Shown: positions 526 to 30,007 of the stretch, piece by piece
Position numbering within the stretch: position 1 is the first letter of the stretch
Layout: the number at the start of each line of letters is the position of its first letter
From: a virus
DNA length: 33,386 bases
IMG/VR virus record: IMGVR_UViG_3300021961_000339
Coordinates: 1 to 33,386 of that record
Direction: 5' to 3' (one strand)
Translations under genes and position numbers: made by a program
The notes under the pieces: model-generated
Databases searched by the model: none
Told to the model about the DNA's origin: nothing
Seen by the model: the letters and a program-made list of their open reading frames with translations, nothing else

Positions 526-1056
526 CTATTTAATATAACCAGCTAGGGCTAAGAACTGTGGGTCGTTGACCATTTCGTCAGCCATGACCTGCATACATTC
601 TACAACCAAGAGGGTGAATCTTTCAGCAACAATGCCAGCCTGTTGGATGTAGTAAGGGCGATAGACCTGGCCCTTCCATAGGATACGGCCACGAGCTTGT
701 AGGTCTGGGTTACCAATTACTCCTGGTGCAATCTTCTCTACGTCCTCAGCATTTAGAGTGAGGTGTAGAGAGTCAGCTCCGTAGTAACCGCGCTGGCTGT
801 TCTTTACGCCACCTTGTTTAATGACGGCTCTTACTACTGGCAAATCAAAGGGACCTCGCCAGATACGACCACCAGTAGCAGTAGATAGGTCTTGTCCTAC
901 ATCATAGATAGGGTCAACCACAGTAGCTACGGGGTCCCAGATAAACCATTTGGCGGTAGTTCCTACAGGACGCTTAAGGTCTGCGTCTACGCCTTCTAAT
1001 ACCTTATTGGTTTCAAAGTCTGCATCAAAGCGACCACCTGGTGCGTGAGCTCTCAA
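526..1056 (-). CDS. Probable head-tail joining/virion protein (176 aa)
   Basis: A 176-aa soluble protein with no motif I can name with certainty. It reads like a phage neck or head-tail joining protein: the middle has 'GRIWRGPFDLPVVRAVIKQGGVKNSQRGYYGADSLHLTL', then 'RGRILWKGQVYRPYYIQQAGIVAERFTLLVVECMQV', which is the type of beta-barrel pattern (report the coordinates, map to a physical quantity) seen in head-closure proteins. The start is TTG at 1056, overlapping the glycosyltransferase stop as TTGA. No ATG occurs until near the C-terminus, and the frame is open upstream into the previous gene, so the start is uncertain. It follows the fibre block rather than the head genes, which is an unusual place for a neck protein. 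Confidence 0.6.
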   Translation of the reverse strand: MRAHAPGGRFDADFETNKVLEGVDADLKRPVGTTAKWFIWDPVATVVDPIYDVGQDLSTATGGRIWRGPFDLPVVRAVIKQGGVKNSQRGYYGADSLHLTLNAEDVEKIAPGVIGNPDLQARGRILWKGQVYRPYYIQQAGIVAERFTLLVVECMQVMADEMVNDPQFLALAGYIK

Positions 1057-2114
1057 TCTTCTACCGCCTTCTTGTAGAGTTCTAGGTTACCGACTATTCG
1101 CTCATCTGTAGGGCTCAACTCTGCGGCTATGGTTCCATATTCAAGGGCCATCTTCTTTTCACCTAACCAAAACGCACATACAGCAGCTAGGTCGTAGGGC
1201 TGTGCTCCCCAGGCAAATGCCTCATTTAAATAGTCCATACTTTTGTTTTTAATATTAACTGCCTTCTTAGCCCACATGTAGCACTCTTCAATACGGCCCT
1301 TGTCATAGTGATACTGTGCCAGCTCTACATACGCCTCTCGTTTAGCAGGTTCTTCTTGAACAGCAAGCTTCCACCACTTAAGCTTCTCTGCTTCATCTGT
1401 AGAGCACTTGGCTATGTAGCGCATAGAAGATGCTCGTTCAGCTTTCCATACCGCTTTAGGCAAAGATAGATGGCGTTTGAACTGAACCAACGCTTCTTCA
1501 ATCTGTCCGTGAAAGAAAAGCTCACGAGCATAGTAGTAAGCATTACGGTCGTTGTGTGGGTCTTCTTCTATAGATAACTTAAGCAATGGAAGGTACTGTC
1601 CGCGAGACTTAGTGTCATCTGCCTTGTGCCATAGGCCTAGCTTTGACCAATACTCTTTCTCAACAAGGCGGTCTGTATAGAGGCACTCGTGTACAGGATG
1701 TAGCCAGCGGTACCCATGGCGTGCATGAATCTTGTCGCCAGCAAAAGTAAGACCAGGGCTACCATCTGGATTGAAGTTCCACGTGTAGTCATACCGTATA
1801 CGTGTAGTTCCTTTGGGTGCCTTTTCCATTTCATCACGCCAACCAGGTGCCAGCACTTCATCCATATCTAATGAGATGCAATAGTCAATGTCGTCTGGCA
1901 ATAGGGCAAGGGCCGCATTGCGAGCATCATCAAAGCGCCATGGTCGTACACTGATTACGTGAACATTAATGCCAAGCGCTAAGGCTTTCTCTACGGTTCC
2001 ATCCGCGGAACCAGTGTCAGCAATCATTAGGTAGTCCGCGTCTTTTGCGGATTCATACCAGCGTTCTACAAACTGTGCTTCATTTAATGCGATGGTGTAT
2101 ACGGCTATTTTCAT
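1053..2114 (-). CDS. Family 2 glycosyltransferase with TPR-like C-terminus
   Basis: A 353-aa cytoplasmic enzyme expected to move a sugar from a nucleotide donor to an unknown acceptor. The GT-A fold is visible in residues 1-100: the N-terminal strand MKIAVYTIALNEAQFVERW, DTGSADGT at 33-40, FDDARNAAL at 61-69 and the metal-binding D-x-D in LDMDEVL (D83, D85). Residues about 185-350 form helical repeats with the TPR flavour (YYYARELFFHGQIEEAL, AYVELAQYHYDKGRIEECYMWAKKAV). This GT2-TPR architecture is the SunS/beta4-glucosyltransferase-like group that includes peptide glycosyltransferases. ATG 2114 has AAGGAT 11 bases upstream. A terminator separates it from the preceding gene, while its stop overlaps the next gene, so it may have its own expression level. 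The target could be a virion protein or a host surface glycan. Confidence 0.85.
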   Translation of the reverse strand: MKIAVYTIALNEAQFVERWYESAKDADYLMIADTGSADGTVEKALALGINVHVISVRPWRFDDARNAALALLPDDIDYCISLDMDEVLAPGWRDEMEKAPKGTTRIRYDYTWNFNPDGSPGLTFAGDKIHARHGYRWLHPVHECLYTDRLVEKEYWSKLGLWHKADDTKSRGQYLPLLKLSIEEDPHNDRNAYYYARELFFHGQIEEALVQFKRHLSLPKAVWKAERASSMRYIAKCSTDEAEKLKWWKLAVQEEPAKREAYVELAQYHYDKGRIEECYMWAKKAVNIKNKSMDYLNEAFAWGAQPYDLAAVCAFWLGEKKMALEYGTIAAELSPTDERIVGNLELYKKAVED

Positions 2115-10570: not shown

Positions 10571-10984
10571 CTATATCAACGTAATCGGTGGTATCACGGT
10601 TTGTACCACGGTCGTAAAGTTCGTTACTGCTCCAACTGGGAAATAAATTCCAGTTTGTAACAGTGCATCGTTAAGAAGCAGTTGTCCTACTCCGCCATCT
10701 CCAGCAGGTCCTTGGATACCAGTTGGTCCGCGTTCACCTGTTGGTCCTGCGATACCATTAACACCAGCAGGTCCAGTGGCGCCAGCAGCGCCCGCAGCTC
10801 CTGCAGGTCCAGTTGGTCCCGCAATACCTGAGGCATATACTAGCGCATTCCAGTTTTGTGTACCATTACCAACCTTAAACTTTCCAGTGTCAAGTTCAAG
10901 ACCTAGTTCACCTTCTGAAAGTAAGGGGTTAGTGGTTGACCACTCAGACGCCGTACCACGACGTAATTGTAATTTAATTGCCAT
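10571..10984 (-). CDS. Short collagen-like fibre protein (137 aa)
   Basis: A 137-aa protein. Residues 1-50 are a known fibre-head module, '[26 protein letters not shown]' then '[16 protein letters not shown]', widespread at the N-terminus of phage fibres. Residues 53-98 are about 14 Gly-X-Y triplets ([19 protein letters not shown] and on), expected to form a collagen triple helix. A short hydrophobic C-terminus ([17 protein letters not shown]) may trimerise. ATG 10984 overlaps the stop of the long collagen-like gene as TAATG, so the two are probably made together. The proline in the Y or X position makes it a possible hydroxylation substrate. Confidence 0.8.
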
Positions 10985-13788
10985 TAGTTACCGCTCACGT
11001 CTCCTCCGTTGATGGTTATAACTCCGCCATAATTAGTTGCAGGGCCGCCACCATCTACGTTCAATAGTGTAGTGCCTGTAGGGCCTGTTGGACCTAGTAA
11101 ACCTTGAGTTCCCGTAGGACCTGTAGGACCTTGAATACCTGTAGGTCCTTGAATTCCTTGAGCTCCTGTGGGACCAGTTGCACCTTGAGGACCCGTATTA
11201 CCAATTGCAGCAGCAACAACTACTAACCAGTTTGCTGGGTCATCGATAGGTGTTATTCCTGCAGTAGAGGTGTTATTTCTACGAACGTATGTACCTTTAA
11301 GTGTTGGAGTGTCGTAGAAGACTGCTTGACCTGGTGAGTAACTAATTCCTGCTTGCCAAGTTCCAACAATTGTAAATGGCTGTGGACCAGTTGCACCTGT
11401 GGCACCTGTAGGACCAGTAATTGATAGACCTTGTACACCAGTAGGTCCAACAGGACCTGCAACACCAGTTGCACCTGTAGGTCCCTGTACTTGACCAGCA
11501 TTAATCCACTGGTCGCCATCCCAGATAAATAGGTTTCCAGCTACTAAGTATGGGTCACCAGTTGTTGGAGTTGGAACAGCGGCTTGTAATTCAGCAAATG
11601 TTGTAAAGGCATTTAGGATGTTTAATCCACGGCCTTGTGGACCAGTAGGTCCAAGTGGACCTTGTGGACCAGTTACACCTTGAGTACCTTGTGGACCTGT
11701 TGGACCAGGGACAGTTGATACTGGACCTGTTGGACCAAGAGGACCGATAGGACCAGCAACACCTTGAATACCCTGTAGACCTTGGTCACCTTGTGCACCA
11801 GTTGGTCCTAGTAAACCTTGTGGACCCTGGGGTCCAGTTGCACCAGTCGGTCCTTGAATAGCGCCAGCGCTAATCCACTGTGAACCGCCCCATACAAATA
11901 GAACACCATTGATTAAGTAACCGTCACCAGTTGCACCAACAGGTTGAGCAGCTTGAAGTTCTGCTAATGAGTTGTATGTTCCAAGAACATAAATAGATGC
12001 ACCAGCAGGACCAACAGCACCTGTTGGACCTTGTGGACCCGTGGCTCCTGCGGTACCTGCCGCACCTGGAGTACCAGCAGAACCTTGAATACCTTGAGGT
12101 CCTTGTGGTCCAGTCGCACCTTGTGGTCCAGGAGCACCAATTGCACCAGTCGCTCCTGTTGCACCAGTTAGACCTTGCGGACCTGTAGGTCCAACAACAC
12201 CTTGCGGACCAGTAGGTCCTGCTACTGTGCTAGCCGCACCAGTTGCACCAGTTGGACCTGTTGCTCCCTGTGGACCAGCGGCTGTTAAAGTAAATGAACC
12301 GTTAAGCGCAGAGTCTTCCTCTGATACAAAGTAAAGTGTTGCAGGGCCAGTAAATGGAACATCCCAGAAGACAGTTCCGCTTGCTACACCAGCAGAAAAG
12401 TTGGTGCTAAATCCTGTTGTGTATTGTGCTCCTGAACTATATGCACCTGCTGTGGTTTGTACTCTAAAGGTATAACCAGGAGTATTGATATCAAGACGGT
12501 AACGAAGGCCGCGGATAACAGTAATAGTTGGATTATTTAATCCGTTAATAACGTACTGGCTAGCAGAACGCGTAACTGATAAATCAATACCGCCAGAGAT
12601 ACCCTGTGGACCTGTAGGTCCTGGAACTGTAGACGCAGCACCAGTAGCACCCGTAGGTCCTGTAGGTCCTATGGCTCCTGTAAAACCAGGTTCACCAGCA
12701 ATAGTAAAAGTCCAAGAGCTGAAGATGTCTCCACCAGGGCCTTGGAAAAGGTTAACATCTAGTGTTATCTGAGCGCCGTTTACGGCTGTCACAATACCGT
12801 CTAAAAATACATTGTTGTTTGCTACAGCTCTAACAATAGAGTTAACAATAAATGGATGGTTGGCAACGCTAAGAGTAAAAGTTTTAGGACCAGTGCTTAA
12901 GGTAATTGGGCTTACAGATGTGATGCCAGCAAAACCTTGACCAACGGCACCAGTAGCACCTGTTGCACCAGTAGCACCTGTAGGACCTACGTTACCTTGA
13001 AGACCTGAGAAACCTCGTTCACCCTGTGGACCTGTAGGTCCCTGTGGTCCTGCAAAACCTGTTGGACCTGTTGGACCTGTTGGGCCAGTATCACCTTGGG
13101 GACCTTGAGTACCTTGGAAGCCCTGTGTACCACGTGGACCTGTAGCACCTGTTGGACCTGCAACTCCTGAAGGACCTGTTGGACCTTCTAGATTACCTAC
13201 GTTCTTCCATGCAGAAGTAACAGTGTCCCAAATAATTAAGTTACCGTTTTCAAGTAACCAAGCTTCTCCTGCTACACCTGTTGGGCGTGCGGCTTGAAGA
13301 GCAGCAAGTGTTGCGTACTCTCCAAGAAGATTTAGTCCTTGACCAGGAGCACCAGTAGGACCAGTTGCACCAGCTAAACCAGAAACACCCTGAGCACCAG
13401 TGGCACCAGTAGGGCCTGCGTTTCCTTGATTACCTTGAGGTCCTGTAGCGCCAGTTCTACCTGTTGGTCCTGTTGCTCCAGTTGCACCTGCAGGAATATT
13501 TAAAGTATCAAATACCCAAGCGTTATTGCTGCGACGGTATAGACGTAGCTGTGTAGCGTTTCCAGTAATGCGGACAAAGGCCCAGTTAGTTGGAACTGGA
13601 CTTGGGTTTGCCGCTTGAAGGTCAGCTAAGGTGTCATAGATACCAAGGTAGCGAGAATAGTCTCCCTGAGGACCAGTTGGTCCTGTTGGTCCTGTTGGGC
13701 CAGTTGGACCATTTAAAGGACCAGTCGGTCCTGTAGGTGTGGGATACCAGTTACCGTTATCTGGCGGAACTATAATAATGTCTGGCAT
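10984..13788 (-). CDS. Collagen-like multi-module fibre (934 aa)
   Basis: A 934-aa fibre whose Gly-X-Y stretches (mostly Gly-Pro-Thr, Gly-Ala-Thr and Gly-Pro-Gln) occupy about 19-42, 101-150, 202-284, 366-400, 505-597, 646-722, 769-803 and 863-905. Folded modules interrupt them. Four are copies of a roughly 47-residue unit with LQAA and a Trp-rich end, at 47-97, 154-201, 600-645 and 723-768. Others are '[21 protein letters not shown]' (about 290-365), a cupredoxin-like beta domain (405-503), and '[16 protein letters not shown]' (811-826), which resembles a chitin-binding CBM5/12. Such proteins form long trimeric fibres or capsid hairs. ATG 13788 follows GGAG in the upstream gene. It lies straight after the connector gene, so a head appendage is possible. 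Confidence 0.9.
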
Positions 13789-15350: not shown

Positions 15351-16421
15351 TTAGTTGGTTTCTGCAATAACAACAGACTGGTCAGTAATAAGACCAAGAC
15401 CGAAGATTGAGTACCAAGCAAGTGCGTGCTCACGACCGAAGTCAAGAATACCACCGTCACGGAGTTCAACTGGAAGAGAGATTGCGTGACCGAATGCGTT
15501 ATCTCCAATGAAGATAGCGTCATAGCGGTCTGAACCACCATTACCTGTGAACTGTGCTGGAGTGATGTAACCTCCACCAGGTGTAACAGTTGGGTTAGCA
15601 ACTGCTGAGTCAGCGGTGTAGTTAGTACCAGCACCACCAGCTACCTTACGTACCTGTGTTGTTTCGATGAATACGCAGTCGTACAAACGACCAACTTCAC
15701 CGAGCATGAAGTTACCAGGAGCAGCGTACTTAGTTACTTCGATAAACTCTGGGTTATCACGAAGCTGACGGCTCTGGTGTGGGTGGATAAACGCAACGTA
15801 AGTTTCGCCCAAACGTGGGATGTTCTTGGTTGCGAGTGTCTCAACAACGTCCTTAACTGTGTGTGGTGTAAGGTAGTTAGCGCCAGTCATGCTTGCGCGG
15901 TTTGTACCCTTAGTACCATATGCATACCAGTTGTTGACTGCTGAAAGGTTAGAGCGGTCTTCACCGTAGATGGTTGAAGTCGCTGCGTAGAGTGTGTCGC
16001 GTGATAGCTGGTCTAGGTAGATAGCCATGTTACGACCGAGAAGACGTGAGGCAGAAGCCATTACGTCATCGAATGAAGCGTTAAGCAAGAGCTCTGATAC
16101 AGCAAGAGCATAACCATGCTCTGTTACTGTGATTGAGAACTGCTGTGCTGTAAGCGCGTTTGTCTGCATACGAACACCTTCGACAAGTGCGTTAGCAAAG
16201 CCGAGGTTGTTGTAGCGGAGGAAGTTAATCTGTAGACCAGGTGCAACACCAAGTTCAGTCTTCTTGACTGCGAACTGCTCGAAGCGAAGGATAGGCATTG
16301 CCTGGAAAAGGATTTCCTTAGACCAGATAACCTGAATCGCCTGAGTCAACTGTGTGTTTGTACCTGAGTACGCTGTTGGGGCTGCGGCTAGATTGCCAGT
16401 ACCCGTAATACCAGATGCCAT
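15351..16421 (-). CDS. Major capsid protein, N4-gp56 family
   Basis: A 356-aa protein that should assemble the icosahedral shell with the HK97 fold. It reads as an N4-gp56 family capsid protein: 'TQAIQVIWSKEILFQAMPILRFEQFA' near the N-terminus, then 'TELGVAPGLQINFLRYNNLG', 'EHGYALAVSELLLNASFDDVMASASRLLGRN', and 'TYVAFIHPHQSRQLRDNPEFIEV' with 'FMLGEVGRLYDCVFIETTQV', all characteristic of this family, and the usual length of 300-400 aa. ATG 16421 has AAGGAG about 12 bases upstream. It follows the scaffold-like gene by 44 bases, the classic scaffold-capsid order. The gene is expected to be the most highly expressed in the window. Confidence 0.92.
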   Translation of the reverse strand: MASGITGTGNLAAAPTAYSGTNTQLTQAIQVIWSKEILFQAMPILRFEQFAVKKTELGVAPGLQINFLRYNNLGFANALVEGVRMQTNALTAQQFSITVTEHGYALAVSELLLNASFDDVMASASRLLGRNMAIYLDQLSRDTLYAATSTIYGEDRSNLSAVNNWYAYGTKGTNRASMTGANYLTPHTVKDVVETLATKNIPRLGETYVAFIHPHQSRQLRDNPEFIEVTKYAAPGNFMLGEVGRLYDCVFIETTQVRKVAGGAGTNYTADSAVANPTVTPGGGYITPAQFTGNGGSDRYDAIFIGDNAFGHAISLPVELRDGGILDFGREHALAWYSIFGLGLITDQSVVIAETN

Positions 16422-16465
16422 TTTAGTTGTTTACTCCTTGTAGGTTGGATTTGGGATTGTGGGAT

Positions 16466-17245
16466 TTACCCGAACAAGCCGCGAGACTTACCACGAGCCG
16501 AAGCGCTCATGATACGTTCTCTGTATTTTGCATAGTCATTCATCGACATTGACTGAATATCTTCAGCCGTTAACGCACGTTGCTCCGAATTGTCGTCCAT
16601 TGGTCCGAGCGGGGGCGTGGTTACCCTGGTCCCCGTCATTTCTTTACGCGCATTCTGCATTGCAAACTGCGCCGATTCAAGAATCTTGTTTGAACGTTCT
16701 TTCAAGCTCTCAATACTTGCTTCTACTTCTTCGCGGGTATTGCCGCTAATCAGGTCTACAAGTTCTGGGATAATGTTTTCACGTTCTGCGTCTACACGTT
16801 GTGAACGGTAGTTCTGTAGGTCAGCAAAAGTTCTTTCGCGTTCCAGAAGAGCGAAGGCACGTTCACGTTCTTGACGCTCACGCTCCAACTGCTCCTGCCA
16901 CTCTGCTTCCTTAGTCTTAAGCAAAGTACGAACATCCATATCACCTTCAAGAGCTTCCTGCTGAGCTTTAGCCTTAGCTTCTGCCTCTGCAGCACGTGCA
17001 GCAAGTTCTGCTTCACGCTCTTTCTTAATGCTATCGAGTTCTTCCTTCAGCTTATCAATCTGAGGATAGAGTTTTTCTTTCTCCTGGCTACGAACTTTAA
17101 CCAGGTCTTCTTCCGTATAAAATTTGGAAGTCGCCTTAGTAGTAGGTGCGTCAGCAACAACAGCGTTGTTTGACGACTCAGCTACGACTGGAACGGTTCC
17201 TGCTTCAGCTGCAAAAGCTTCTGCATTTAGTCCTGCTGTTTCCAT
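16466..17245 (-). CDS. Scaffolding-like coiled-coil protein (259 aa)
   Basis: A 259-aa protein placed between portal and capsid, where the scaffold is normally encoded. Residues 1-40 are Ala-rich and disordered. Residues about 40-205 are almost wholly charged helix (VRSQEKEKLYPQIDKLKEEL, AELAARAAEAEAKAKAQQEA, EWQEQLERERQERERAFALL). The end is basic (KYRERIMSASARGKSRGLFG), as scaffold C-termini that bind the capsid shell often are. No protease motif is seen. ATG 17245 has AAAAAGGAATC upstream and a 116-base leader with a promoter-like element. Scaffold is inferred from position, charge and length. Confidence 0.8.
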   Translation of the reverse strand: METAGLNAEAFAAEAGTVPVVAESSNNAVVADAPTTKATSKFYTEEDLVKVRSQEKEKLYPQIDKLKEELDSIKKEREAELAARAAEAEAKAKAQQEALEGDMDVRTLLKTKEAEWQEQLERERQERERAFALLERERTFADLQNYRSQRVDAERENIIPELVDLISGNTREEVEASIESLKERSNKILESAQFAMQNARKEMTGTRVTTPPLGPMDDNSEQRALTAEDIQSMSMNDYAKYRERIMSASARGKSRGLFG

Positions 17246-25578: not shown

Positions 25579-26493
25579 TTACTTGTACACGTTCTTTACA
25601 AAATCTTTATCATCAAAATTTAAACCCATCTCTTTTTGTAACTTGGCAAAGCCCTCCATGTGGTCCTGTATGCCATATACCCCAAGGTCCTCGCCACGGA
25701 ATAGCTGAGCTAACCTAACTCTTGACTGAGCATCTCTAACGCCCCACAGCTGATTATCAATCCAGTGAAAGTTTCTTCGACCGTTATCTCTATCAAAGTT
25801 AGTCCACAGTACGTTTACTGGTGGGGCTATCAAGGTAACCCCGTTGAGGATTAGTCGGATTCCTAAACTGATTTCCTCTCCCAAAAAATAAATATAGGGG
25901 TCATAGGGAGCTCTCATAAAAGCCTCAGAACTTCCAAAAGCAAAATTAGCGCAGAAAGCATACGCCTTATCACCATTGACTTTATCCTCTAGAGGTTCCC
26001 ACTCAAGTAGATATAGCTGCTCTGCCTCTCTCCATATGGGCCCTGCTTTATAAAAATCTTCATCTGTTGAAAACTTTTCTACACCACCGTTATCCCAATC
26101 AAACGTGAATCCGTGAGGGTACTTAGTGAGTATAAGAAGGTCTCCCCATACGCACGAAAGCCTGTTGTAAGTGTCTATTAGGGTTTCGTCCCACCCCTCC
26201 GCAACCCTAGAGTGAGAATCAGTGTGTAGAAAGTACTTGTATTGTTTAGAAAGCAACGAGTTTGCCAAATGACGGCCAGAACAAGCCCCGTCAGCCAATC
26301 TATAGTCTATTTTTTGATAGGACAATTGATGTTTTGGTATAAAACTAAAATCAAAATTGCACTCTTCACCCTCGTGGGACACTAAAGAGAAGAAAAGCCT
26401 ATCTTTGTGCGTAGCCTTTGTGTAAATGCTACGTACAGTGTTGATTAAATCTGGGTCTCTGTAAGCAGCTAGGCTTACAAAGATTTTATCCAC
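25579..26493 (-). CDS. GlcNAc-transferase-like glycosyltransferase (PF11397 type)
   Basis: A 304-aa soluble glycosyltransferase. It matches the PF11397 group, which includes the Skp1 hydroxyproline GlcNAc-transferase: 'IFVSLAAYRDPDLINTVRSIY' (4-24), 'ADGACSGRHLANSLLSKQYKYFLHTDSHSRVAEGWDETLI' (67-106) with the metal site DSH at 92-94 and WD at 101-102, and 'YFLGEEISLGIRLILNGVTLIAPP' with E206-E207 (202-225). Donor and acceptor cannot be read from sequence. The start GTG 26493 lies one base after the stop of the dioxygenase gene, so the two are coupled. Others of this family in phages are thought to modify virion or surface glycans. Confidence 0.85.
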   Translation of the reverse strand: MDKIFVSLAAYRDPDLINTVRSIYTKATHKDRLFFSLVSHEGEECNFDFSFIPKHQLSYQKIDYRLADGACSGRHLANSLLSKQYKYFLHTDSHSRVAEGWDETLIDTYNRLSCVWGDLLILTKYPHGFTFDWDNGGVEKFSTDEDFYKAGPIWREAEQLYLLEWEPLEDKVNGDKAYAFCANFAFGSSEAFMRAPYDPYIYFLGEEISLGIRLILNGVTLIAPPVNVLWTNFDRDNGRRNFHWIDNQLWGVRDAQSRVRLAQLFRGEDLGVYGIQDHMEGFAKLQKEMGLNFDDKDFVKNVYK

Positions 26494-26494
26494 T

Positions 26495-27058
26495 TTACAT
26501 CATCCCTCTGGTATTGTTTTGCTCACGTAGTACGTATAGATACTCTGGGCCTTTTGTAAAATACCAGTGGTCTGGTTCACAGTAGAATAAGAAAACGTTT
26601 GCAACTACGTTGTTCATTGGGTCTGGAAACGGCTCACGCCAATGCTCTTGGTCGTTACCATACATTAAAAGCGCTTCATTTTCGTCTAAAAAGTACTCTT
26701 TACCCTCAACCCAAATAGACCATGGCGTCTTTTGATATATGCATAGGTCAATATTATAGGTGCAGGCATTATCGTCTTTGTGATGGTGCAGTTGAGCTTT
26801 TGGGCCTTCATATACTGCTAGTTGATACCAAGAAGGGATTAGGGTTTCACTTTCAAAATGTTCTCTAGCAACTGCGGTTAAATCGTTATGAAGCTCGTCA
26901 AGCCATGGTGATTTATTAAGTTGATATCTACCAAACCCTTTTTCAAAGGCATCCATGCTCGACTCTTCGTAGAACTCTATAGTTTTAGCCTTTAAGTCTG
27001 CAAACTTTGTGGGTTCCAACACGTTTTTAATTAGCATTGGGTCTTTAACTTTAATCAC
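26495..27058 (-). CDS. 2-oxoglutarate/Fe(II) dioxygenase, prolyl-hydroxylase-like
   Basis: A non-heme iron oxygenase of 187 aa from the chosen start. The facial triad is visible: H-x-D at 93-95 (HHKDD), and a distal His at 139 (DQEHWRE), with W and beta strands between (CTYNIDLCIYQKTPWSIWVEGKEY). The fold 'L-x-x-Y-x-G-P-K-A-x-L-x-x-H-x-D' is close to phage and cyanophage 2OG-Fe(II) enzymes; a standard Arg for 2OG ten residues after the distal His is not obvious, so the co-substrate is a family inference. GTG 27058 is chosen for AAAGGGAA seven bases upstream and an 8-base overlap with the previous gene; ATG 27037 and TTG 27088 are alternatives. Prolyl-hydroxylase is a hypothesis drawn from its GT partner and Pro-rich neighbours. 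Confidence 0.75.
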   Translation of the reverse strand: MIKVKDPMLIKNVLEPTKFADLKAKTIEFYEESSMDAFEKGFGRYQLNKSPWLDELHNDLTAVAREHFESETLIPSWYQLAVYEGPKAQLHHHKDDNACTYNIDLCIYQKTPWSIWVEGKEYFLDENEALLMYGNDQEHWREPFPDPMNNVVANVFLFYCEPDHWYFTKGPEYLYVLREQNNTRGMM

Positions 27059-27335
27059 TTGCTGGTTCCCTTTCTTCGTTAGTTGCAACGTTCCATTTGC
27101 CTACTGGGCACTCTGCATCTGCTAATTTTACTTTTAAGTTCATTATGCAGCCACACTTTTTACACTGGTGAGTTGCGCCTATGTAATGGGTGCATGCTTT
27201 ACAAATATCAAGACGTGCCTGTGCAACAGAGTCTAGGGCTCTAGAGGAGTCGGTTTTAAGTAAATCCCAAGGTCTAGTTGTTCCTAGGTTTTTCTTATAA
27301 CGTTGCCAAGCGCTTAGGTTTTCTTCTTCACTCAT
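27051..27335 (-). CDS. Six-cysteine zinc-binding protein (94 aa)
   Basis: A 94-aa protein with a zinc-ribbon-like core: C45-x2-C48, C58-x2-C61-x-C63 and C76 (ICKACTHYIGATHQCKKCGC, then CPVGKW). Small proteins with this 'ICKxC...CKxCGC...K...CPxGKW' pattern are widespread in tailed phages, often beside glycosyltransferase or dioxygenase genes, and their role is unknown. The flanks are charged helices. ATG 27335 follows the 82-aa gene by 6 bases; it overlaps the dioxygenase start. I think it is part of the modification operon. Confidence 0.8.
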   Translation of the reverse strand: MSEEENLSAWQRYKKNLGTTRPWDLLKTDSSRALDSVAQARLDICKACTHYIGATHQCKKCGCIMNLKVKLADAECPVGKWNVATNEEREPASD

Positions 27336-27341
27336 AGTGGC

Positions 27342-27590
27342 CTACTCTACAGGAGGATTGAAGGTATTTCCATCCCATGTCCAGCCAGGCAAAACCGCGG
27401 TGTCTAATGGAAGGGCTACGACCTTTGGGTCTGACAAAAGGCCAGCAATGCAGCGCTTCTCTACATCGCGGATATCATACGGATTTTTATCATCTAAAGA
27501 AATGACGCCAAATACGTCCCCATCCACTATAAAAGCAAACTTATGAGTAGCTTGGTTTAGTTCGCTACCTTGTGGGAGTCTATCGTCCAT
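27342..27590 (-). CDS. Small fibre-accessory-like protein (82 aa)
   Basis: An 82-aa acidic protein. Residues 1-60 have 'ATHKFAFIVDGDVFGVISLDD' and 'CIAGLLSDPKVVALP', and it ends PGWTWDGNTFNPPVE, a motif common to small proteins encoded next to phage fibres and similar to that of the 91-aa gene at 2571. ATG 27590 has AGGAT six bases upstream. It sits directly after the Thr-Pro protein, so a fibre-linked role is the best guess. Confidence 0.7.
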   Translation of the reverse strand: MDDRLPQGSELNQATHKFAFIVDGDVFGVISLDDKNPYDIRDVEKRCIAGLLSDPKVVALPLDTAVLPGWTWDGNTFNPPVE

Positions 27591-27608: not shown

Positions 27609-29219
27609 TTATGCAATACATTGGTAAATACTTAAGCAACGACCACGGAAGTCGCGGCAGTAGCAGCTTATAGGTGTTGGTGTAGGGGTTGGGGTAGGTG
27701 TAGGTGTTGGGGTAGGCGTTGTTGTACAACGGCATACGCCGTTAACAATAGACCAAGTACCAGCACAAGGACCAGAGCATGTTGGTGTTGTTGGAGCAGG
27801 GGTAAAGATAGGTGTAGGTGTAGGTGTAGGAGTTGGTGTAGGAGTAGGAGTAGGAGTTGGGGTGACAGTTACAGGTACGCAAGGACCTGTGTTTGGACAG
27901 CTACCGCCAGTCCAACATACATCTCTGAAACCTGAAGCACACGTTGAGTCTGGTTTTATGCCGCTAAGAGCTGGGTCGCAACTTGAACATGGTGGATAGC
28001 TGCAGTTACCATTTGCTGTACTGCATGGTAGAGATTCTGGAGCAGAACAAGGAACTGAAGGGTCGGTGGTGCTATAGGCACATGTGCCGCCTTGAACAGT
28101 TCCCCCACCGCTTGTACACGCCTGTACTGCAAAATATTGCGCGTCGTTGCACGAGGCGGCGCTTTGTCTAGAAATTTGTGTATAAGTACCACCAGTACTA
28201 CAACAAACAGTATAACGATAGGTGTTTTGAGTAGTGACTGTACCAGTTGGACAACCCGAGCCACTTGATGGCATTGTAAAATTAGCAGTAGATGTAGCCG
28301 ATGTACCTGAACCGTTAATTCCAGAGTACACAGTTAGTGTTGCAGTAGCAGTTTGACCACAGAATTGACTTGGGTTGGGGGCAGTACTTGGAGAACCACT
28401 TGAGGCAGTTCCATTTACTATACCAGTGCTAGCACCAATTCCTGAAAGTGACCAGGATGCATATCCAAATGCACTCCAGTTTCCAACAGGTACAAGTGCC
28501 AGTGCTAGTTCAGAAAAACCAGCAGCAGCTGTAAACGAGGTAATACCAATTGTTGGACCACTTGGTGTAGGAGTAGGAGTTGGAGTAGGAGTAGGGGCTG
28601 GGGAGGTTGGAGAGACGGTTCCAGAAGCGGTTGAGGCTAATCCCGTACCGTTTTCATTAGTAGCAGCAACTGTAAAGTTGTATGTGGTACCTACTACGCC
28701 AGAAAAACTGTAAGTTGTAGCAGCGCTATTTGTAACAATTGGAGAGCCTACAGTAGGTGTGATTGTGTAACTAGTTATTGCTTTACCAGCGTTTGCTGGA
28801 GCTACCCAGCTAAGTGAAATTCCACCACCATTTACAAGGTTAATTGCAGTTAATGATGTTGGACGTCCAGGAACTGTAGTTGCAGTATCTGGGCCAACCC
28901 CAGCAGAGTTTGCAGACTCAAATACTTCGTTTCTAGCTCTAATTGAGTATGTGTACTTAATACCTGAGCGTAAACCAGTAAAAACAAATGGGGCTAAGTT
29001 TGCAATTGTTGCAGTTACTGCATTTCCAGTTTCTGGGGTTGCAACGACTACGTAATCAATAATCGGTAGCTTGCCATCAAAAGCTGATGGGTTAAATGTT
29101 AAGAATGTAGCGCCGTCGTCAAATGCACGACCAGAACCAGAGTCTGAACGTGAAGCTACAGAAGGAGGTAGTGGAGGTACCTTCTTCTGAGAGTCGGCGA
29201 CACCAGGATAAATTGGCAT
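27609..29219 (-). CDS. FnIII and Thr-Pro/Cys-rich virion surface protein (536 aa)
   Basis: A 536-aa protein probably exposed on the virion. Two fibronectin III domains are readable: about 20-115 (VFTGLRSGIKYTYSIRARN) and 118-203 (ISLSWVAPANAGKAITSYTI, TTYNFTVAATNENG). A Thr-Pro tract follows (207-219), then a beta domain (222-310), then a C-terminal part with 24 cysteines, a density rare in phage cytoplasmic proteins and suggesting disulfide bonds outside the cell. Two longer Thr-Pro tracts lie in this part, and the protein ends CYCRDFRGRCLSIYQCIA. The tracts are likely stiff linkers and suitable for O-glycosylation or prolyl hydroxylation. ATG 29219 overlaps the upstream stop as TAATG. No signal peptide. 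Confidence 0.75.
   Translation of the reverse strand: MPIYPGVADSQKKVPPLPPSVASRSDSGSGRAFDDGATFLTFNPSAFDGKLPIIDYVVVATPETGNAVTATIANLAPFVFTGLRSGIKYTYSIRARNEVFESANSAGVGPDTATTVPGRPTSLTAINLVNGGGISLSWVAPANAGKAITSYTITPTVGSPIVTNSAATTYSFSGVVGTTYNFTVAATNENGTGLASTASGTVSPTSPAPTPTPTPTPTPSGPTIGITSFTAAAGFSELALALVPVGNWSAFGYASWSLSGIGASTGIVNGTASSGSPSTAPNPSQFCGQTATATLTVYSGINGSGTSATSTANFTMPSSGSGCPTGTVTTQNTYRYTVCCSTGGTYTQISRQSAASCNDAQYFAVQACTSGGGTVQGGTCAYSTTDPSVPCSAPESLPCSTANGNCSYPPCSSCDPALSGIKPDSTCASGFRDVCWTGGSCPNTGPCVPVTVTPTPTPTPTPTPTPTPTPIFTPAPTTPTCSGPCAGTWSIVNGVCRCTTTPTPTPTPTPTPTPTPISCYCRDFRGRCLSIYQCIA
27672..27716 (-). repeat. Thr-Pro-encoding hexanucleotide repeat, C-terminal
   Basis: An imperfect repeat of a six-base Thr-Pro unit, read as ACN-CCN on the minus strand, encoding about seven Thr-Pro pairs near the C-terminus of the 536-aa protein. 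Confidence 0.75.
27811..27863 (-). repeat. Thr-Pro-encoding hexanucleotide repeat, middle
   Basis: An imperfect six-base repeat encoding about nine Thr-Pro pairs between two cysteine-rich segments of the 536-aa protein. Confidence 0.75.
28563..28595 (-). repeat. Thr-Pro-encoding hexanucleotide repeat, after FnIII
   Basis: An imperfect six-base repeat encoding about five Thr-Pro pairs between the second fibronectin III domain and the following beta domain. Confidence 0.7.
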
Positions 29220-30007
29220 TAAGCAGTCAAATCACCAGAAAGCCACCAGGTGTTAGCTGCTACTTTTACCAAAGTAGCGCCAGACCATCTAGTGCGGAGT
29301 CTTAGACCAGGAGTAGCGTTTACGCTAGCAGGAGACGTTGCTGTAAACACTACGCCACCTGTTTGACCACGTACAAAGTTAATTTGAGTACCTATAGGAA
29401 AATTAACAGAATCTGTTGGAACTGTAATAGTTAAATCAACTAAAGTGCTGGTGTTTACTAAATAAAACAGTTTATTCTTGTCCACAAGTGCAAGGGTAAA
29501 GTTTTCACTCTTTTGTTCCACAGTTGCATCAGCTGCAACAGCGGTTACAGAACCTTGAATGTTAGCTGCTAGTGTTTTTCCAGTAAAAGTGCCATCTGGG
29601 GTAACTCCAGCAATAATTTCGTTACCAGAACCTTGAAATTCTAGAAGGTTTACTGATTGATTAAGAGCACCTTGAACAATTAGGGCTCTATTAGTAGCTA
29701 GTCCAGCTTGAACCTTGTTAGATTGAGCACCATCAGCTATTTTTCTTACATACTGTGTGTGAGAGTCGGCTACAACGCCCAACTCAACCTTAGCAATACG
29801 TGCAGACACAGTGCCTAGGTTTGAAGAGCTACCTTCGTAGGTTTCAGAAGGGTTTGGGGTAGTAGATGTAGCTGGGTTTAGACCTAAAGTGGTTTCAACA
29901 GCAACAATTTCCTCTTGAAGGCTATTTGGGTGTGAGGCGTCAACTGTATCAACGACATTTTGTTTAGTAGTAAATACTCGTACCGAACTTGGGTATGATG
30001 CTGGCAT
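29219..30007 (-). CDS. Fibre-type structural protein (262 aa)
   Basis: A 262-aa protein that looks like a fibre. The start MPASYPSSVRVFTTKQNVVDTVDASHPN (ATG 30007, GAAAGG upstream) resembles the N-terminal attachment part of phage fibres ('V-x-x-x-D-A-x-H-x-N-x-L-Q-x-E-I-x-A-V-E-x-x-L-G', at 20-43). The middle has 'GTVSARIAKVELGVVADSHTQYVRKIADGAQ' and a repeat-like 'ANIQGSVTAVAADATVEQKSENFTLAL' and then a beta domain with 'FPIGTQINFVRGQTGGVVFTA' ending ANTWWLSGDLTA, a common fibre C-terminus. Its stop overlaps the Thr-Pro protein start (TAATG). Likely builds the same appendage. Confidence 0.8.
   Translation of the reverse strand: MPASYPSSVRVFTTKQNVVDTVDASHPNSLQEEIVAVETTLGLNPATSTTPNPSETYEGSSSNLGTVSARIAKVELGVVADSHTQYVRKIADGAQSNKVQAGLATNRALIVQGALNQSVNLLEFQGSGNEIIAGVTPDGTFTGKTLAANIQGSVTAVAADATVEQKSENFTLALVDKNKLFYLVNTSTLVDLTITVPTDSVNFPIGTQINFVRGQTGGVVFTATSPASVNATPGLRLRTRWSGATLVKVAANTWWLSGDLTA

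What the first reader, a model, noticed from the sequence alone, without database searches (positions are those of the whole stretch)
25579..27058. Adjacent dioxygenase and GlcNAc-transferase-like genes: possible prolyl hydroxylation and glycosylation of phage fibres
Seen: a 2OG-Fe(II)-type oxygenase (H-x-D at 93-95, His 139) is one base from a glycosyltransferase with the PF11397 signature (DSH, WD, EE). Known: in eukaryotes such as Dictyostelium, a prolyl 4-hydroxylase and a PF11397 GlcNAc-transferase act in sequence on Skp1, adding GlcNAc to hydroxyproline. Inferred: this phage may encode an equivalent two-step system. Its own proteins offer many substrates: about 300 or more residues of Gly-Pro-Thr triplets at 10571-13788 and three Thr-Pro tracts at 27609-29219 in the same operon. 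Hydroxyproline would also stabilise a collagen triple helix. A third glycosyltransferase is at 1053-2114.
Basis: partly seen in the sequence, partly recalled or inferred. Interest (0 to 1): 0.85.

Follow-up and report, generated by a model that had tools for sequence, protein, structure and literature searches.

The report
Phage enzymes that hydroxylate proline-repeat proteins
This freshwater phage, and dozens of distantly related ones, carry a gene cassette that probably adds hydroxyl groups, and then sugars, to long proline-repeat stretches of a phage protein encoded next door, a chemistry otherwise known mainly from plant cell walls and animal or protist proteins.

Summary
A 187-aa 2OG-Fe(II)-type oxygenase ("ox1") lies one base from a PF11397/GT60-type glycosyltransferase (3e-35). 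AlphaFold gives ox1 an oxygenase fold (pLDDT 92) whose top PDB neighbours are mostly prolyl hydroxylases. The glycosyltransferase's first 30 PDB neighbours are all polypeptide GalNAc-transferases.

Comparative genomics supports the two-step idea but moves the substrate. Of 53 deduplicated ox1 loci, 47 have a neighbouring gene with long (X-Pro)n tracts, versus 3 of 25 ox1-lacking loci sharing this phage's lysozyme-like gene (p=4e-11). Collagen shows no link (p=0.8). Glycan genes of several families (GT60, O-fucosyltransferase-like, GT11-like, APS kinase) sit beside ox1 in 39/53. With the O-FucT-like partner, threonine is often replaced, in two loci almost entirely by (Val-Pro)n, leaving hydroxyproline as nearly the only possible O-glycan site in the tract. 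Independently, marine phages carry bona fide prolyl-4-hydroxylase domains; 13 of 20 clusters have an (X-Pro)n tract in the gene immediately upstream.

Most likely ox1 hydroxylates Thr-Pro tracts of the neighbouring fn3 protein. Whether the sugar goes on Hyp or Thr is unresolved. No hydroxyproline has been measured.

The parts
26495..27058 (-). ox1: 2OG-Fe(II)-type oxygenase, proposed prolyl hydroxylase (187 aa, GTG start)
   Evidence: Invariant Y83, H93xD95, H139, R141 in 27 relatives; AF2 pLDDT 92; top PDB fold matches PHD2, P. putida P4H, Dictyostelium Skp1 PHD, but also AlkB/AviO1/SnoN; no Pfam match; phrog_2954, labelled ferrochelatase
25579..26493 (-). GT60-type (PF11397) polypeptide HexNAc-transferase-like glycosyltransferase (304 aa)
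   Evidence: PF11397 3.1e-35; DSH/WD/EE conserved; AF2 pLDDT 85.5; PDB fold ranks 1-30 all polypeptide GalNAc-transferases
27609..29219 (-). fn3-domain protein with three (Thr-Pro)n tracts: proposed substrate
   Evidence: PF00041 fn3 8e-14; TP tracts of 5, 9 and 8 repeats; no PHROG match, so virion location is inferred from position
28563..28592 (-). (TP)5 tract (within APTPTPTPTPTP)
27810..27863 (-). (TP)9 tract
27672..27719 (-). (TP)8 tract
27051..27335 (-). Small zinc-ribbon protein, usually directly upstream of ox1
   Evidence: DUF6171-like 4.7e-5, below cut-off; phrog_13558 3.5e-16; conserved beside ox1 in many loci but also present where ox1 is absent
27342..27590 (-). Small protein between the fn3 protein and the zinc ribbon
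   Evidence: Homologues in the same slot in other loci; no PHROG match
29219..30007 (-). Gene upstream of the fn3 protein; its homologue is fused to X-Pro tracts in L033-L035
   Evidence: phrog_21978
10984..13788 (-). Collagen-like tail fibre; considered and disfavoured as substrate
   Evidence: PF01391 1e-51; X-Pro 59, Y-Pro 4 of 134 triplets; no association with ox1
1053..2114 (-). GT2 glycosyltransferase with TPR repeats, a separate glycosylation gene
   Evidence: PF00535 1.6e-6; phrog_13126 7e-107

Best explanation
ox1 is a viral prolyl hydroxylase. Its substrate is the Thr-Pro tracts of the fn3-domain protein encoded two small genes upstream, which is probably a tail or other virion protein. 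The adjacent GT60-type transferase then adds a HexNAc-type sugar to the hydroxylated tract, either on Hyp or on the neighbouring Thr, giving a stiff, sugar-coated spacer like a plant arabinogalactan protein or extensin. In related phages the tract and the hydroxylase stay while the sugar-adding partner is swapped (GT60, O-FucT-like, GT11-like, mannosyltransferase-like, APS kinase with a sulfotransferase-like gene). Shown here: gene content, folds, conserved catalytic residues, recurrence of the cassette and its tie to (X-Pro)n tracts. Inferred: the hydroxylase activity, the identity of the sugar, the acceptor atom, the virion location and the biological purpose.
For: 47/53 deduplicated ox1 clusters have an (X-Pro)n run of 6 or more prolines within 3 kb on the same strand, versus 3/25 ox1-lacking clusters sharing the window's lysozyme-like gene (Fisher 4e-11); at most four clusters were found through their TP tract, so at least 43/49 without them. 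A scan with the ox1 profile alone gave 28/31 new clusters with tracts, mostly under 1 kb away. Within the window's own lineage, orthologues of the fn3 protein that lack ox1 have short TP runs (L131) or PP-rich stretches instead of (TP)n (L128-L130, L132-L134). A second oxygenase family (PF13640) takes the same slot: TP protein - oxygenase - radical SAM - GT60 in L171 and L204. Bona fide P4H domains (best PDB matches B. anthracis P4H 1.5e-27, human P4HA2 4e-20, Chlamydomonas P4H 3e-16, PBCV-1 P4H 3e-13; HxD/H/K conserved wherever aligned) sit 21-48 bp downstream of an X-Pro gene in 13/20 phage clusters; in L274 that gene matches phrog_14478, a virion structural protein. Thr+Ser per Pro is 0.98 beside GT60 but 0.52 beside O-FucT-like partners, down to 0.04 in a (VP)n tract (p=3.6e-5), so Pro, not Thr, is the constant. 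GT fold: polypeptide GalNAc-transferases.
Against: No hydroxyproline or glycan has been measured. ox1 has no sequence match to any P4H; fold similarity is modest (TM about 0.6, 11-14% identity) and shared with AlkB and sugar oxygenases. The Lys/Arg that binds 2OG about 9-10 residues after the last His in P4H/PHD2 (own knowledge) is missing; an invariant Arg sits at H+2. GT60 also occurs without ox1. Most phage contigs with (TP)9 tracts (105 of 120) carry none of ox1, the PF13640 family or GT60 in the stretch held. In three isolate phages the best P4H-like gene is not beside an obvious tail gene. In chloroviruses, which encode an active P4H, attempts to detect Hyp in virions failed (PMC7019647).
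Confidence: 0.6

Rival explanations
1. The two enzymes work on the same tract but independently: the GT60 enzyme glycosylates Thr in mucin fashion, and ox1 hydroxylates Pro only to stiffen the polyproline-II rod. There is no Hyp-linked sugar in this phage.
For: GT60 includes Thr/Ser-directed polypeptide GlcNAc-transferases (PMC8724618); the fold neighbours are Thr/Ser-directed ppGalNAc-transferases; tracts beside GT60 keep one Thr per Pro (0.98); relatives carry GT60 without ox1.
Against: Tracts with neither GT60 nor O-FucT nearby are equally Thr-rich (0.94), so Thr retention is not specific to GT60; in O-FucT-type loci with (VP)n tracts there is almost no Thr/Ser in the tract to glycosylate.
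Confidence: 0.27
2. ox1 is a sugar-tailoring or small-molecule oxygenase that modifies the glycan or NDP-sugar, and is linked to X-Pro proteins only because these are the glycosylated proteins.
For: Fold matches include AviO1, EvdO1 and SnoN, oxygenases of sugar-containing natural products, at E-values similar to PHD2; glycan genes lie beside ox1 in 39/53 clusters.
Against: The X-Pro tie (47/53) is tighter than the glycan-gene tie (39/53), and 16 clusters with tracts but without GT60 or O-FucT keep ox1; bona fide P4H domains and PF13640 oxygenases occupy an equivalent position.
Confidence: 0.13
3. ox1 hydroxylates the collagen-like fibres (Gly-Pro-Thr), stabilising the triple helix, as the first reader also proposed.
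For: Collagen-like genes are in the window (10571-13788); X-position Hyp followed by Thr can stabilise a triple helix (own knowledge).
Against: No association of ox1 with collagen (16/53 versus 6/25, p=0.79); Pro is in X (65) not Y (4); the collagen genes lie about 13 kb away while the TP protein is adjacent.
Confidence: 0.05
4. Passenger linkage: ox1, GTs and X-Pro genes are all frequent cargo of a variable tail region and have no shared reaction.
For: Tail regions are gene-exchange hotspots (own knowledge); most phage (TP)n contigs show none of these enzymes; the control set has uneven flank coverage.
Against: The association is very strong against same-lineage controls, is specific (collagen shows none), and is repeated by unrelated P4H domains whose X-Pro gene is 21-48 bp away.
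Confidence: 0.06

Closest known systems
Skp1 modification pathway of Dictyostelium and other protists (PhyA prolyl hydroxylase + Gnt1, GT60)
   Same: A cytosolic-type 2OG oxygenase and a GT60-family polypeptide transferase; the Dictyostelium PHD (6t8m) is among ox1's fold matches.
   Different: The target there is a single proline of Skp1 for oxygen sensing; here it would be long X-Pro tracts of a phage protein. ox1 has no sequence match to PhyA, and GT60 is only one of several interchangeable partners.
Plant hydroxyproline-rich glycoproteins (arabinogalactan proteins, extensins)
   Same: X-Pro repeats (TP, AP, VP, SP) hydroxylated by P4H and then O-glycosylated on Hyp; the tracts here have the same layout. 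Chlamydomonas P4H matches the phage P4H domains of the L193 type.
   Different: Secretory-pathway system with plant-specific sugar transferases; none of those families was found here.
PBCV-1 (chlorovirus) prolyl 4-hydroxylase
   Same: A virus-encoded P4H acting on Pro-containing peptides (PMC7019647); same family as the phage P4H domains.
   Different: Eukaryotic algal virus; substrate in the virus unknown and Hyp not detected in virions; ox1 is not recognisably a member.
Mimivirus L230 collagen lysyl hydroxylase / glucosyltransferase
   Same: Viral hydroxylation followed by glycosylation of a repetitive viral protein, with hydroxylysine found in virions (PMC9614988).
   Different: Acts on Lys of collagen; different oxygenase and GT families, fused in one protein.
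Cyanophage 2OG-Fe(II) oxygenases (T4-GC 615 'ferrochelatase', S-SM1, S-RIM32; EGLN3-like phage proteins)
   Same: ox1 is a distant relative (26% identity; S-SM1 protein is BFVD fold rank 6).
   Different: The survey that reports EGLN3-like phage oxygenases names no substrate (PMC12774648); in the regions fetched the ox1 relatives lie in clusters of oxygenases and no GT60 gene is annotated there.
Glycosylated mycobacteriophage virions (Freeman et al. 2023, cited from the reference list of PMC12619734; paper not held)
   Same: Phage-encoded transferases thought to glycosylate virion proteins.
   Different: No hydroxylation step is known to me.

Membership tests
2OG-Fe(II) oxygenase superfamily (double-stranded beta-helix) | HxD...H iron-binding triad | tested here: met
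   H93, D95, H139 invariant in 27 sequences
2OG-Fe(II) oxygenase superfamily (double-stranded beta-helix) | Double-stranded beta-helix fold | tested here: met
   AF2 pLDDT 92; 543 PDB matches at E<=0.001, the 50 listed being 2OG oxygenases
2OG-Fe(II) oxygenase superfamily (double-stranded beta-helix) | Basic residue about 9-10 after the distal His, binding the 2OG carboxylate (as in P4H/PHD2) | tested here: not met
   No Lys/Arg at H139+9/+10; invariant Arg at H+2 instead; such an H-x-R motif also occurs in the C-terminal domain of the L193-type proteins
Prolyl 4-hydroxylase family | Sequence match to P4H profiles or structures | tested here: not met
   No Pfam match for ox1; phmmer and profile search of the PDB empty. 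Met for L193-type phage proteins
Prolyl 4-hydroxylase family | Closest fold among prolyl hydroxylases | tested here: inconclusive
   PHD2, P. putida P4H and Dictyostelium PHD lead, AlkB/AviO1/SnoN close behind
Prolyl 4-hydroxylase family | Hydroxylation of peptidyl proline | not testable with these tools
   Needs biochemistry or mass spectrometry
GT60 / PF11397 polypeptide HexNAc-transferases | PF11397 above curated cut-off | tested here: met
   122.7 bits against 21
GT60 / PF11397 polypeptide HexNAc-transferases | DxH metal motif and GT-A fold like polypeptide GalNAc-transferases | tested here: met
   DSH conserved; fold ranks 1-30
GT60 / PF11397 polypeptide HexNAc-transferases | Transfers GlcNAc to Hyp or Thr of a polypeptide | not testable with these tools
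   Sugar and acceptor need an assay
Skp1-type hydroxylation-glycosylation pair | Obligate pairing of the oxygenase with GT60 | tested here: not met
   GT60 near ox1 in 14/53 clusters; other partner families elsewhere; GT60 without ox1 in L131, L134, L053
Hydroxyproline-rich glycoprotein (plant type) | X-Pro repeat tracts encoded beside a hydroxylase-like gene | tested here: met
   47/53 clusters
Hydroxyproline-rich glycoprotein (plant type) | Hydroxyproline and Hyp-O-glycan in the mature protein | not testable with these tools
   Needs mass spectrometry
Collagen prolyl 4-hydroxylase substrate | Pro in the Y position of Gly-X-Y | tested here: not met
   4 Y-Pro against 65 X-Pro in the two collagen genes

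The most novel reading that the evidence does not exclude
Phages make their own hydroxyproline-rich glycoproteins. A constant prolyl hydroxylase (ox1, the PF13640 family or a true P4H) creates hydroxyl handles along X-Pro tracts of a virion protein, and interchangeable sugar modules (GT60, O-FucT-like, GT11-like, sulfation) decorate them, as a modular surface coat analogous to plant arabinogalactan proteins but evolved in viruses of bacteria.
Probability: 0.42. Interest if true: 0.92.

Novelty: new variant of a known kind. Interest (0 to 1): 0.8.

Why it matters
2OG oxygenases resembling human prolyl hydroxylase EGLN3 are the commonest human-like structural hit among phage proteins, yet the work reporting this names no substrate (PMC12774648), and the role of the chlorovirus P4H is also unknown (PMC7019647). 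The genomic link to X-Pro tracts names a specific, testable substrate for a large group of phage enzymes. If correct, hydroxyproline and probably Hyp-linked sugars exist on phage proteins, with consequences for virion structure, receptor binding and recognition, and it would be a compact, soluble, swappable system for hydroxyproline glycosylation that could be expressed in laboratory E. coli.

Tried and rejected
Collagen as the main substrate: rejected by no association and Pro in X. 'Ferrochelatase' (phrog_2954 label): rejected as a database name, because ox1 has the HxD...H triad and an oxygenase fold. Skp1-like fixed GT60 pairing: rejected, partners vary. Thr-Pro tracts as a recent DNA microsatellite: disfavoured, codons vary. 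Homology of ox1 to the C-terminal domain of the L193 P4H protein: only suggestive (profile comparison P=0.006, probability 6%; control against an unrelated alignment 0.055; earlier single-sequence try P=0.028), not claimed, although both share HxD and H-x-R. A bacterial source for ox1: the profile scan of 84,980 genomes found no relative by its two peptide patterns. Isolated phages with the L193-type P4H beside X-Pro genes: none evident among Erwinia Y3, Salmonella Sen-NF and Microcystis Mel-JY01, judged from annotation. PDB sequence search for the window GT found nothing convincing. Literature search found no report of prolyl hydroxylation of phage virion proteins, within an open-access library only.

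Full report
WHAT IS THERE. The window is a 33.4-kb virus record; close relatives include a 96.9-kb contig. On the minus strand, in transcription order, lie a 262-aa protein (30007-29219), an fn3-domain protein with three Thr-Pro tracts (29219-27609), an 82-aa protein (27590-27342), a zinc-ribbon protein (27335-27051), the oxygenase ox1 (27058-26495, GTG start) and the glycosyltransferase (26493-25579). The GT matches PF11397 at 3.1e-35. ox1 matches no Pfam family above chance; its only family match is phrog_2954, named ferrochelatase, a label that cyanophage relatives also bear.

THE PROTEINS. In 27 ox1 relatives Y83, H93, D95, H139 and R141 are invariant. AlphaFold2 models ox1 at pLDDT 92. 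The PDB fold list is led by HIF prolyl hydroxylase PHD2, with P. putida P4H and the Dictyostelium Skp1 prolyl hydroxylase, at TM about 0.6 and 11-14% identity; AlkB, AviO1 and SnoN follow at similar E-values, so the fold alone does not name the substrate. Among viral models the S-SM1 'ferrochelatase' (rank 6) and a protein named procollagen-proline 3-dioxygenase (rank 11) are close. There is no Lys/Arg at the usual place after the distal His; Arg141 (H+2) probably takes that role (inference). The GT model (pLDDT 85.5) has polypeptide GalNAc-transferases as its first 30 PDB neighbours and keeps a DxH motif. By literature, GT60 covers Thr/Ser-directed GlcNAc-transferases, and the Skp1 hydroxyproline GlcNAc-transferase is related to them (PMC8724618).

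THE CASSETTE ELSEWHERE. Scans of IMG/VR brought in relatives of ox1, the GT, a lysozyme-like backbone gene and the gene upstream of the fn3 protein. A recurring order emerged: X-Pro repeat protein, small genes, zinc ribbon, ox1, sugar gene. The tracts are extreme: (TP)n, (TPVAP)n, (VP)n, PFFPPFFP. The sugar gene varies: PF11397; O-FucT-like (PF10250, weak), often with an epimerase; GT11-like; mannosyltransferase-like; APS kinase with a sulfotransferase-like gene.

STATISTICS. After collapsing loci sharing 1.5 kb or more at 90% identity or better, 47 of 53 ox1 clusters have an X-Pro run of at least 6 prolines within 3 kb on the same strand, against 3 of 25 clusters that share the lysozyme-like gene but lack ox1, counted anywhere in the locus (Fisher 4e-11). 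Up to four of the 53 were found through their TP tract; without them at least 43 of 49 remain. Glycan genes: 39/53 against 7/25 (p=2e-4). Collagen: 16/53 against 6/25 (p=0.79). The second ox1 scan by itself gave 28 of 31 new clusters. Caveats: clusters share ancestry, and some control loci are cut short on the relevant side. The cleanest comparison is inside the window's own lineage: orthologues of the fn3 protein in loci without ox1 have only short TP runs (L131) or PP-rich stretches (L128-L130, L132-L134). Those same loci still carry GT60-type genes, so the GT does not depend on ox1.

INDEPENDENT SUPPORT. 120 phage stretches with (TP)9 were collected by DNA pattern alone. Most carry none of these genes (105 of 120 lack ox1, the PF13640 family and GT60), so (TP)n does not imply the system. 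But 12 carry ox1 or a second oxygenase family (PF13640), often adjacent; in L171 and L204 the order is TP protein - oxygenase - radical SAM - GT60 - epimerase, and in L172 and L217 both oxygenases are in tandem. In L193 the gene next to a (TP)18 protein is a true P4H domain by sequence (B. anthracis P4H 1.5e-27, human P4HA2 4e-20, Chlamydomonas 3e-16, PBCV-1 3e-13) fused to a second oxygenase-like domain and followed by a radical SAM-like gene and GT60. Its relatives form 20 clusters; in 13 the X-Pro gene is 21-48 bp upstream. HxD, distal His and Lys are conserved wherever aligned. In L274 the upstream X-Pro gene is a recognised virion structural protein (phrog_14478, 1e-194). The P4H family was noticed through L193's TP tract, so L193's own cluster is not independent; the others are.

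HYP OR THR? In tracts beside GT60 there is 0.98 Thr+Ser per Pro (11 clusters), with neither main GT 0.94 (16), and beside O-FucT-like genes 0.52 (19), reaching 0.04 and 0.11 in nearly pure (VP)n tracts (GT60 versus O-FucT, Mann-Whitney p=3.6e-5). Pro is therefore the constant, and in (VP)n loci hydroxyproline would be nearly the only hydroxyl in the tract. For the window, with (TP)n and GT60, Thr and Hyp both remain possible acceptors.

MECHANISM. Most likely, ox1 hydroxylates prolines of the Thr-Pro tracts and the GT60 enzyme adds a HexNAc to the tract; the product would be an extended, sugar-coated spacer in a virion protein. Shown: gene content, fold, catalytic residues, recurrence, association. 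Inferred: activity, sugar, acceptor, virion location, purpose.

KNOWN OR NEW. Hydroxylation followed by glycosylation is known for Skp1, plant cell-wall proteins and mimivirus collagen (L230, PMC9614988), and chloroviruses have an active P4H of unknown role, with Hyp not detected in virions (PMC7019647). A recent structural survey notes that EGLN3-like oxygenases are widespread in phages but proposes no substrate (PMC12774648). I found no report tying phage oxygenases to X-Pro proteins, within an open-access library only. I file this as a new variant of a known kind (hydroxylation plus glycosylation of X-Pro repeats), in phages and with interchangeable sugar modules. ox1 itself should not be filed as a P4H family member, because the sequence test failed.

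Noticed in passing
L204:6989-7921, L171:1755-2687, L193:487-1392: A radical SAM gene (Radical_SAM plus SPASM by Pfam in L204; similar sequence in the others) lies between the oxygenase and the GT60 gene; it may add a further peptide modification to the same tract.
   Followed up: no
L006:542-1345 and 2125-2892; L351:7345-8088: Sulfotransferase-like gene and APS kinase flank ox1 in L006 (APS kinase also in L351), suggesting a sulfated version of the modification.
   Followed up: partly
L025:5245-9675 (also L026, L027): Cassette downstream of ox1 with O-FucT-like, unknown protein, carbamoyltransferase (Carbam_trans_N/C) and NAD-epimerase genes.
   Followed up: partly
L053:11909-13558, L067:16102-17454: The X-Pro proteins carry what looks like a C-terminal Hint/intein-like domain (CLVSTTLISTPNGFVQAKDIKVGDIV...).
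   Followed up: no
window 10571-10984: Small protein with an Mtd_N (major tropism determinant N-terminal) domain and a collagen stretch.
   Followed up: no
window 27051-27335 and homologues: Small zinc-ribbon gene sits just before ox1 or the PF13640 oxygenase in many loci, and is also present in loci that lack ox1.
   Followed up: partly
L134:11682-12428, L053:9988-10737, L033:9295-10026: DUF6065 family genes (Pfam match in L134 and L033, similar sequence in L053) occur in these tail cassettes; function unknown.
   Followed up: no
phrog_2954 / cyanophage T4-GC 615 (L255:6334-7450): Annotated 'ferrochelatase' but relatives of ox1 with an HxD...H triad and oxygenase fold: probably a long-standing misannotation.
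   Followed up: partly
L043:5104-6819 and 15680-16690; L033, L035: Proteins with PFFPPFFP-type repeats in addition to X-Pro tracts.
   Followed up: no
window 526-1056; homologues beside ox1 in L006, L023, L029-L032, L351-L353: Conserved protein of unknown function, next to ox1 in several loci without a nearby glycosyltransferase.
   Followed up: no
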